Shown here: in pieces, positions 18,606 to 23,912 of the stretch
Layout of the letters: every line of letters begins with the position of its first letter
How positions within the stretch are numbered: position 1 is the stretch's first letter
Assembly (NCBI GenBank): GCA_007695295.1
Contig: REEB01000161.1
Location: forward strand, 1-35,335
From: Puniceicoccaceae bacterium
Lineage (GTDB): Bacteria > Verrucomicrobiota > Verrucomicrobiia > Opitutales > Opitutaceae
Direction of reading: 5' to 3'
Length of the DNA stretch: 35,335 nt
The notes under the pieces: generated by a model
The model's database searches: none
What the model was told of the DNA's origin: nothing
The model's input: the letters and a program-made list of their open reading frames with translations, nothing else
Position numbers and translations under genes: made by a program

Positions 18606-21600
18606 CTACCGGTCGTCGGAGGAGTGGGCTGCACCGCCGGGCCTGATGGTCGCTTCCTCGGACAGGTGACGGATCTCACAGAGCGGTAGCTCCCAGCGTT
18701 CACACTTCGCAAATTTGAAGTCGACCCCTTCGCCGTCACTTTGACGGCGTTCGACCATGGCGAGGACGCGGATCTCGTCGATGCATTCGAGGCGCTGACC
18801 CCACTTGGCGGCTCCGGACTTGGAGAGCCGGGCAACGGGGTAACCTTCGGGGTGACAAAGCACGAGCTGATCCGCGCGGGCGACAAGGTTCAGCCGGTCG
18901 CCAGGCTTGAGGTCGGCGAGGTGGCGATGAATGGCGGTCTCGGGCGGGAAGATGGAGGCGTAACTCAGAAAGAGGTCGTCGAAGCCGAGGCTGGTGAAGC
19001 GGTGCCGGCTCCAGCTCAGGTCGGCTTCAGGAGCAGGTGCGGGAGCGTCTTCGAGAAAGACGTCTTCGCCGATCGTTTCGTCGGAAAACCGACCGGCGAC
19101 GTCGGCGCGGCGGAGCACGGTGAGGGTTTCGGCGGCTCGGGTCATGCCGACGTAGTATACACGGCGTTCCTCCTCCAACTCGGCGGGCCGGAACGGTCGG
19201 CCTGCGATGGGCCAGCCACCATCGAGAAGAAGGACGTGGCGGAATTCGAGGCCTTTGGCGCCATGCACGGTGCGAAGGCGGATTCCGGGACCGCGGAGAC
19301 CTTGGCGGCGTTGGTCGCCGAGGGCGTCGCAGAAAAACCCGCGGATGGCGGGCACCGCCAGCCGGACTGCGCCATAGAGCCCATGACACTCGGATGCAAT
19401 TTCCACCAGCTGGTCGGACCATGGATCGTCCAAAACATCGAGAAACTGGTGGAGGCGATCGACGAGCTCGGGGACGGCCCAGTCTTCATCGCGGTGCGAT
19501 TCGAGGAAACGGAGCCAGCGGGCGACAGGCCGCAGGCGGAACGGGGAGGGACTGGATTTGGAGTCCGGCTCCAAAGCGCGGGGCAGGCCGCGGGCTTCGA
19601 GGAGCGCGCGCACGAGATCGAGATCTTGGCGCCGGCGTGCGAGAACGGCAAACTCGGCGTATTCGGAATTCGGATGCAGCACTTTCAACCGCTCAATTTC
19701 GCCGATGGCGGCGAAGGTCTGGTGGACGGCATCCTTGGTCCGGAGGCAGTGGACGCGGCCATGGAGGACCGGATCGATGGAGTGCCAGCGGCCGCCTGCG
19801 GGCTGTCCGGTGCGGCCGGGATCGATGCGGATCGGAGCGAGGGCCTTCATCCGGTCGTGGTTGTGCGCGATGAGGTGGTTGGCGGCCTTGATGATGGCGG
19901 CCGAGGAGCGGTAATTGTGGAGGAGTTCGTGGCGTTCGGCTTGGTACTCCTCGCAGTACCGGCGGATGAAGGCGACATTGGCCCCCTTGAAGCCGTAGAT
20001 GGACTGGTCATCGTCGCCGACCACGAGCAGGTGGGGGCGGCGGCTGTCGCCTTTGAGGTCGATGCCGGCGAGAGCACGGAGGAAGTTGTATTCCGCCTCG
20101 TCGATATCCTGGTATTCATCGACAAGGATGTAGCGGATGTCGCCGAGGAGGAGGTCGCGGAGGTTTTCGGGATCGGCGCCGGTGACTTCGGCTTCACCGC
20201 GAAGCCAGCGGGTGGCATCGTGAAGGATGGCTTTGAAATCGATGGCGGCGGCGGACTCCCGCCCGGCGGTTCCGGTCGGCACGAGGCTGCGGCCGAGCAG
20301 GCGGAGGGCGAGGCCGTGGTAGGTGGCGATGGTGACGCCGTGACAGTCCTCACCGGCGAGGGCGTAAATACGGCGGCGCAGGTCGAGGCAGGTGTGGCGA
20401 TTGAAGCAGAGGACGAGGAGCTGATAGGCACGGAGACGTTCGACCTGCAGGAGATAGGCGCAGCGGTGGACGATGACGCGGGTTTTGCCTGAGCCCGGTC
20501 CGGCCAGGACGATGAGGTTTTTGTCCGGGGGACTGGCCACGACCGCCTGCTGGGCCGGATTGCGGAGCTGGTCGACGATGGCGTGGAAGGACTCGATACT
20601 GGTGGCGCGGCGGTAGTGTTCCTGATCCTCCTTCAGGTATCTGCGGGCGAACTCGCTCTGAGAGAGGCGGAAGTAATCGGCGATGAGCCCGATGTGGGCG
20701 GCCACCTTGCGCGTGGCGGTGCGGGCGTATTCCGCCATGATGTGGATCTGCAGGATGCGCCCGGTGTAGTGGGCGGCCATGGCGGCGAAGTCGCCTTTGG
20801 TAAAACTGGCAATCTTGGGGCGATCGGTTTTGTCCTTGTTGAGGACAAGCGTCATGGCGCTGGTGATGAGCGCCTTGCCGTTTTGCAGATCGAGCAGGCC
20901 GGTCTGATGAGCGAAGGTGAGCAGGCCGAGGATGGCTTCAGAAGGGTCGCGGACCGGATCGGCGCGCAGTGCGAGGTCCTTCTCGAAGGCCTCGGCAAGG
21001 TCGTGCTCGGAAAATTCAACGAACGCATCCGCCGTGCTGCGGTCGGCTTTGGCGATGAGCAGATCGAGGATGGTGGCGAGGTGGGCATGGCGGCAGCGGA
21101 TGCCGTCGAGCAATTCCTGCCATGTAGCGATCAATCGGATACGAAAAAGTTCCCGGCCTTCCGCACGAACCTCGACCCGGGGTGGCTGGCCGTGGAGCTG
21201 GCGGGCGTCCTGCTCCCACTGGCGGAAGAAGCGAGCCAGCGTTTCCATGGTGCAGTCGACCCCGGATTCGGCAAGGCGGCGGTTGACGGCGGCAAGGTGG
21301 CAGGGCAGCCAGCCGTCCGCATCGGGCTGAAGCTCGCGCAACAGTTCGAAAAAGCCGGTTTCGGCGCGGGCAAGGTCATCAAGCAGGCGGAGGGCCTTTT
21401 TGCGGGCGCCCGTTTTGATCCAAGCGCTGAAGAGCAGGCCTTTGCGGATGAGGCCCGCGTTCGGGTGGGCCATCTGGTTGAGAACCCGGATGATGAAGTG
21501 GAAGAGATCGAGCCGGGGAGCGTTGTCGTGTCCCTCGGCATGGAAGAAGGCGTCGGTCTGAGGGCACTCTGCAAAGATATCGAGGCTGCAGGCGCTGTCC

Positions 21601-23912: not shown

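What the first reader, a model, noticed from the sequence alone, without database searches (positions are those of the whole stretch)
18606..23912. Exonuclease, RecQ and UvrD helicases in one 1768-residue protein
Two complete helicase motors of different superfamilies and opposite-class architecture, plus a DEDD-like nuclease domain lacking an obvious third-motif His/Tyr, are fused in one chain with about 450 unassigned residues between the motors. Helicase-nuclease fusions of this kind may act in break processing or against foreign DNA. RecQ and UvrD normally move 3' to 5', so how two such motors cooperate is open.
Basis: partly seen in the sequence, partly recalled or inferred. Interest (0 to 1): 0.65.

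Follow-up and report, generated by a model that had tools for sequence, protein, structure and literature searches.

The report
Exonuclease–RecQ–UvrD fusion enzyme family
A single bacterial protein joins a DNA-chewing domain to two complete DNA-unwinding motors; this is a real, patchily spread protein family, often found beside anti-virus genes, whose function nobody seems to have tested.

Summary
The minus strand at 18606-23912 encodes one uninterrupted 1768-residue protein. It carries an N-terminal DEDD 3'-5' exonuclease fold, a RecQ motor, about 460 residues that Pfam cannot assign, a UvrD motor and a small C-terminal domain. It is not an artefact: 69 further loci from many phyla carry the same fusion in one open frame. 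All four DEDD acids are kept, but the usual His/Tyr is Asn130, in 66 of 70 family members and in remote relatives. Four invariant cysteines (C213, C273, C278, C281) sit between exonuclease and RecQ. The unassigned stretch is predicted to be about four tandem winged helices. The family is patchy (2-5% of genomes in two phyla and in the own family), solitary, and in other genomes often lies among defence genes, though not in this window. Best explanation: an accessory single-polypeptide helicase-nuclease that unwinds and trims 3' ends at branched or broken DNA, more likely against foreign DNA than for housekeeping repair. The function is inferred. RefSeq names members only 'RecQ family ATP-dependent DNA helicase'; a 2014 survey of RNase H-like proteins lists a cluster with RecQ helicases; no study of the whole fusion was found in the open-access library.

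The parts
18606..23912 (-). whole gene, exonuclease-RecQ-winged helix-UvrD fusion, 1768 aa
   Evidence: single open frame; 69 full-length relatives
23445..23873 (-). DEDD exonuclease fold, residues 14-156; D26, E28, D81, D135; Asn130 in the His/Tyr position; H117 and K121 invariant
   Evidence: alignments, AlphaFold pLDDT 92.9, fold matches
23049..23444 (-). helix bundle with four invariant cysteines C213, C273, C278, C281 (residues 157-288), presumed Zn or Fe-S site
   Evidence: 70 of 70 Cys in each column; model helices
21951..23048 (-). RecQ-type SF2 motor, residues 289-654
   Evidence: Pfam and NCBIfam, PDB RecQ matches
20583..21950 (-). middle region, residues 655-1110: about four tandem winged helices and a helical tail
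   Evidence: AlphaFold pLDDT 84.6; fold matches are single winged helices; no Pfam family across 36 members
19083..20579 (-). UvrD/PcrA-type SF1A motor, residues 1112-1610
   Evidence: Pfam, PDB UvrD/PcrA matches, invariant motifs
18609..19082 (-). C-terminal domain, residues 1611-1768, unassigned; conserved Gly1671 and Trp1740
   Evidence: alignment A3, no family
17518..18537 (-). neighbour, IS200-type Y1 transposase-like gene (not part of the enzyme)
   Evidence: Pfam PF01797

Best explanation
An accessory single-polypeptide helicase-nuclease that takes apart branched or broken DNA, most likely of incoming or replicating foreign elements. Shown by sequence and model: an intact two-metal DEDD carboxylate set, two complete motors of families that run 3'-5', a Cys4 module, a winged-helix array. 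Inferred: the winged helices and Cys4 module dock on a duplex arm or junction; RecQ runs 3'-5' along one strand and the DEDD domain trims the 3' end behind it; the UvrD motor, held by the winged-helix array, runs 3'-5' either behind RecQ on the same strand or on the other arm of a fork, so that nascent 3' ends are peeled off and degraded. It acts alone, without a dedicated partner gene. Defence rather than housekeeping repair is the likelier purpose.
For: Four acids, all helicase motifs and four cysteines kept across 70 members and most remote relatives, so all three sites are under selection. RecQ and UvrD parts co-evolve (distance correlation 0.915). Patchy: 17 of 387 genomes in the own phylum, 2 of 100 in the own family, 15 of 299 in the phylum of G387 (Aeromonas; Pseudomonadota), 13 of 59 in one sulfate-reducer family. 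The tree needs repeated phylum changes on starred branches. Neighbours of 24 copies (3 genes each side) hit 136 PADLOC models at E<=1e-20, among them HerA, SIR2, JetA, MkoB, DrmD, DpdE, PDC-S05, PD-Lambda-1, against 30 models in random stretches of six of the same genomes, mostly one UvrD and one NtrC-type regulator. Type I restriction, CRISPR I-D, and SNF2-helicase/PLD clusters lie beside plasmid copies. The own genome also has other RecQ-like and UvrD-like genes, so the fusion is accessory.
Against: The window's own copy sits between a microcompartment/glycosidase region and a rhamnosidase, with only a Y1 transposase-like gene beside it. No partner is conserved (commonest neighbour family 3 of 143). 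In part of the sulfate reducers the gene is fairly frequent, as a repair gene could be. The Asn in place of His/Tyr may mean weak or absent nuclease activity. The enrichment counts models, not genes, and the control is small.
Confidence: 0.45

Rival explanations
1. Housekeeping-type repair enzyme: a bacterial WRN-like exonuclease-helicase with an added UvrD motor that processes stalled forks or broken ends of the host chromosome.
For: The N-terminal half has the order exonuclease-RecQ-winged helix, as in WRN (WRN chains are among the PDB matches of the RecQ part). A Bacteroides plasmid copy lies near genes that look chromosomal, including deoxyribonuclease IV. Present in 13 of 59 genomes of one family.
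Against: Absent from about 95% of genomes in two phyla and 98% of the own family; the host already has RecQ-like, UvrD-like and PDDEXK_1 (RecB-family-type) nuclease genes; repeated defence neighbours.
Confidence: 0.3
2. The exonuclease domain is a DNA-binding relic: Asn130 has removed catalysis and the protein works only as a double motor, for instance clearing RNA polymerase, R-loops or recombination intermediates.
For: The general-base His/Tyr of DEDD enzymes is replaced by Asn in 66 of 70 members and in Bacteroides, Scytonema and Aliarcobacter copies; a pseudo-exonuclease form of DinG is described (PMC11981726).
Against: All four metal-binding acids are kept, unlike the pseudo-exonuclease DinG, which lost two of them (PMC11981726); invariant His117 and Lys121 lie at or beside a less certain loop just before motif III and could replace the lost base.
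Confidence: 0.2
3. An artefact: two neighbouring genes joined by a sequencing or assembly error.
For: None found; one relative (L041) is split by a stop.
Against: 69 independent loci carry the same fusion in one frame.
Confidence: 0.01

Closest known systems
RefSeq 'RecQ family ATP-dependent DNA helicase' proteins of about 1600-1750 aa (e.g. WP_207249163.1, WP_223295316.1)
   Same: the same family, full length, same domain order
   Different: the name mentions only RecQ; no function is recorded
WRN (human Werner exonuclease-helicase)
   Same: exonuclease, RecQ motor, winged helix in one chain
   Different: WRN's exonuclease is of the DEDDy/RNase D type and it has no UvrD motor (own knowledge); here a DnaQ/RNase T/DinG-like fold with Asn, no HRDC found; probably convergent
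ExoDinG (S. aureus/B. subtilis DinG)
   Same: N-terminal DEDD exonuclease followed by a helix bundle; best fold match, Z 14.4, rmsd 4.4, 241 residues
   Different: DinG's motor is XPD-like and its exonuclease is DEDDh (PMC11981726); no UvrD
RNase H-like superfamily cluster F.14 (PMC3985635)
   Same: a PF13482-type exonuclease cluster that includes RecQ helicases was listed in 2014
   Different: the text does not mention UvrD, the Asn, Cys4 or context; identity with this family not shown
DpdF / PsyrT RecQ-like defence helicases
   Same: RecQ cores score well (347 and 279 bits)
   Different: match is confined to the RecQ core; far under the DpdF cut-off (204 against 550)
AddAB, RecBCD, AdnAB
   Same: combined motors and nuclease
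   Different: nuclease is PD-(D/E)XK and motors are SF1 (own knowledge); no RecQ

Membership tests
RecQ family (SF2) | TIGR00614 above its cut-off; helicase motifs | tested here: met
   274 bits against 219.8; motifs invariant
RecQ family (SF2) | canonical RecQ equivalog, with Zn-binding and HRDC parts | tested here: not met
   TIGR01389 327 against 640 bits; no HRDC or RecQ zinc domain in Pfam
UvrD/Rep/PcrA (SF1A) | PF00580 and PF13361 above cut-off, SF1A motifs | tested here: met
   133 and 70 bits against 23 and 25.6
UvrD/Rep/PcrA (SF1A) | UvrD, PcrA or Rep equivalog | tested here: not met
   143-193 bits against cut-offs over 900
DEDD exonucleases | four metal-binding acids in three motifs and DEDD fold | tested here: met
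   D26, E28, D81, D135; fold Z 10-14 to DEDD enzymes
DEDD exonucleases | His (DEDDh) or Tyr (DEDDy) in motif III | tested here: not met
   Asn130 in 66 of 70, Ser in 3, Ala in 1
DEDD exonucleases | 3'-5' exonuclease activity | not testable with these tools
   needs an enzyme assay
WRN | DEDDy exonuclease of RNase D type plus RecQ-RQC-HRDC | tested here: not met
   no Tyr at the motif III position, no HRDC match
ExoDinG | XPD-like SF2 motor with Fe-S/arch domains | tested here: not met
   motor is RecQ-type
DpdF | NF041063 above cut-off | tested here: not met
   204 against 550 bits
Anti-phage defence system | restriction of phage or plasmids | not testable with these tools
   only neighbourhood evidence

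The most novel reading that the evidence does not exclude
A widespread, unrecognised single-gene anti-mobile-element system: a DEDD exonuclease of a new subtype (Asn in motif III, with His117 as possible substitute base) tied through a Cys4 clamp to a RecQ motor and through four winged helices to a second 3'-5' motor, which dismantles foreign replication forks or ends.
Probability: 0.35. Interest if true: 0.75.

Novelty: new variant of a known kind. Interest (0 to 1): 0.55.

Why it matters
It puts an exonuclease and two motors of different superfamilies but the same expected polarity on one chain, which makes the coupling of such motors testable with one purified protein. If it is a defence enzyme, a common RefSeq label ('RecQ family helicase') hides a widespread immune gene. 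The conserved Asn tests the rule that DEDD enzymes need His or Tyr.

Tried and rejected
Sequencing-error join: rejected by 69 relatives. DpdF membership: rejected by cut-off, though a Scytonema plasmid copy lies about 0.5 kb from an SNF2-helicase/PLD cluster, with a tgt and a DGQHR gene some 20 kb away. Phage origin: only 3 matches in 2.9 million viral contigs and no full-length phage record. E. coli: no DNA match to the Aeromonas copy. Conserved partner gene: none; HNH, WYL and stand-alone 3'-5' exonuclease genes recur at a few loci only. A 1712-aa neighbour in L056 first looked like a tandem copy because of its length; it is unrelated (5% identity, NERD plus SF1 helicase). The middle region gave no PDB sequence match and only single winged-helix fold matches. 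Literature searches for the complete fusion found nothing, but only open-access papers are held. Coordinates of models were not available, so clustering of the four cysteines or the place of H117 in the active site could not be measured. The Bacteroidota frequency could not be counted because no genome handle was reached.

Full report
Observation. The reported span holds one open frame on the minus strand, 1768 codons from ATG (23912) to stop (18606), without internal stop. Pfam finds a RecQ-type SF2 motor (313-636) and a UvrD-type SF1 motor (1118-1599) and nothing else. NCBIfam places the first motor in the RecQ family above cut-off, but far from the canonical RecQ equivalog.

Not an artefact. 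A scan of one genome per species gave 80 best loci; with the window, 70 rows have a frame of at least 1650 codons and align over the full length. They come from Verrucomicrobiota, Thermodesulfobacteriota, Pseudomonadota, Planctomycetota, Myxococcota, Kiritimatiellota, Actinomycetota and a candidate phylum; plasmid records add Cyanobacteriota, Bacteroidota, Campylobacterota and a shortened Deinococcus form. RefSeq names them 'RecQ family ATP-dependent DNA helicase'.

Exonuclease. D26 and E28 (motif I), D81 in GHNxxxHD (motif II) and D135 (motif III) are kept in 68-70 of 70 rows. The residue five before D135, which is His in DEDDh enzymes, is Asn in 66, Ser in 3 and Ala in 1. The same Asn is found in Bacteroides, Scytonema and Aliarcobacter copies of 26-30% identity. 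P115-Y116-H117 and K121 just before motif III are invariant in the 70. AlphaFold on the family alignment is confident (mean pLDDT 92.9), with a weaker loop at about residues 114-133. Foldseek and VIA-align rank TREX1-like, oligoribonuclease, DnaQ, RNase T, ExoI, T7 polymerase and DinG exonucleases; the best is S. aureus DinG, Z 14.4, rmsd 4.4, over 241 of 277 residues, so that part of the helix bundle is matched too. A helix bundle after the exonuclease is described for ExoDinG (PMC11981726).

Cysteines. C213, C273, C278 and C281 are Cys in all 70 rows, spaced C-x59-C-x4-C-x2-C. They are kept in the Bacteroides copy and lost, wholly or in part, in the Scytonema and Aliarcobacter copies. A remote first Cys plus a cluster recalls the iron staple of AddB/DNA2-type nucleases (own knowledge); Zn is equally possible. 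Not tested.

Middle and end. Residues 645-1122 were folded on 36 sequences (pLDDT 84.6, pTM 0.67): the helix-strand pattern reads as about four winged helices and a helical tail (the count is my reading of the secondary structure). Structure matches are to single winged helices, with Z up to 9.6 over 77 residues; no relative by sequence in the PDB or Pfam. The C-terminal 158 residues are conserved but unassigned.

Evolution. Distances in the RecQ and UvrD parts correlate at 0.915 and in exonuclease and RecQ at 0.83, so the parts have travelled together. The RecQ-part tree groups rows partly by phylum but needs at least 4-5 label changes for Pseudomonadota and Thermodesulfobacteriota on starred branches; metagenome bins and paralogues could account for some. 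The family is in 17 of 387 genomes of the own phylum, 2 of 100 of the own family (and those two differ much in score, 1e-86 and 1e-50), 15 of 299 of the phylum of G387 (the Aeromonas genome, i.e. Pseudomonadota), and 13 of 59 of one sulfate-reducer family. The window's genome has other RecQ-like genes and a UvrD-like gene elsewhere, so the fusion is accessory.

Context. In the window the gene lies between a glycosidase/microcompartment region and an alpha-L-rhamnosidase, with an IS200-type transposase-like gene beside it. In 24 loci with long flanks, three genes on each side were scanned: no family occurs in more than 3 of 143 proteins, but PADLOC hits include HerA, SIR2, JetA, MkoB, DrmD, DpdE, PDC-S05 and PD-Lambda-1 (136 models). 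The same gene caller and scan on 24 arbitrary stretches of six of those genomes gave 30 models, mostly to one UvrD and one NtrC-type regulator. Limits: models are counted, not genes; the longest control proteins were dropped to fit a size limit; six genomes only. Plasmid copies lie next to a type I restriction operon, near a CRISPR I-D operon and beside a SNF2-helicase/PLD cluster on a Scytonema plasmid that also has tgt and DGQHR genes.

Mechanism. RecQ and UvrD families translocate 3'-5' (established knowledge). A DEDD domain degrades 3' ends (established for the fold; unproven with Asn). The simplest model is a junction- or end-binding enzyme in which RecQ opens the duplex and the 3' end it leaves behind is trimmed, while the UvrD motor works behind RecQ on the same strand or on the other arm of a fork. 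That all three active sites are conserved is shown; strand assignment, target and purpose are inferred.

Known or new. The exonuclease-RecQ association was touched on in 2014 (cluster F.14 of PMC3985635); whether that cluster is this family could not be checked. No paper on the complete fusion was found, and the term 'DEDDn' is absent from the library. It is best called a new variant of helicase-nuclease fusions.

Noticed in passing
window 7640-15786: A bacterial microcompartment operon: EutN/CcmL-type vertex proteins (9949-10223 and 11656-11964), BMC-H shell protein (13898-14167), PduL-type phosphotransacylase, acetate kinase, aldehyde dehydrogenase, class II aldolase and DeoR regulator; with the rhamnosidase nearby it looks like a fucose/rhamnose-degrading planctomycete-verrucomicrobial type.
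   Followed up: partly
L056:14987-20122: Next to the Pseudomonas guineae copy: a 1712-aa protein with NERD, kinase-like and SF1 helicase domains, with a WYL regulator upstream of the fusion gene; Mokosh-like.
   Followed up: partly
L135 (Scytonema plasmid AP018264.1): The fusion gene lies near an SNF2 helicase/helicase/PLD cluster; tgt (perhaps DpdA-like) and DGQHR genes lie about 20 kb away.
   Followed up: no
L141:8537-9742: A gene annotated as WYL-domain protein directly upstream of the Pseudanabaena copy, beside a large DEAD/DEAH helicase; Pfam at 1e-5 did not confirm WYL.
   Followed up: partly
L107 (Deinococcus peraridilitoris plasmid): A shortened form annotated only from within the RecQ part, with transposases around it; perhaps decaying.
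   Followed up: no
window 463-5450: Flagellin gene and a 1265-aa TPR/DUF3857 protein at the left end of the window.
   Followed up: no
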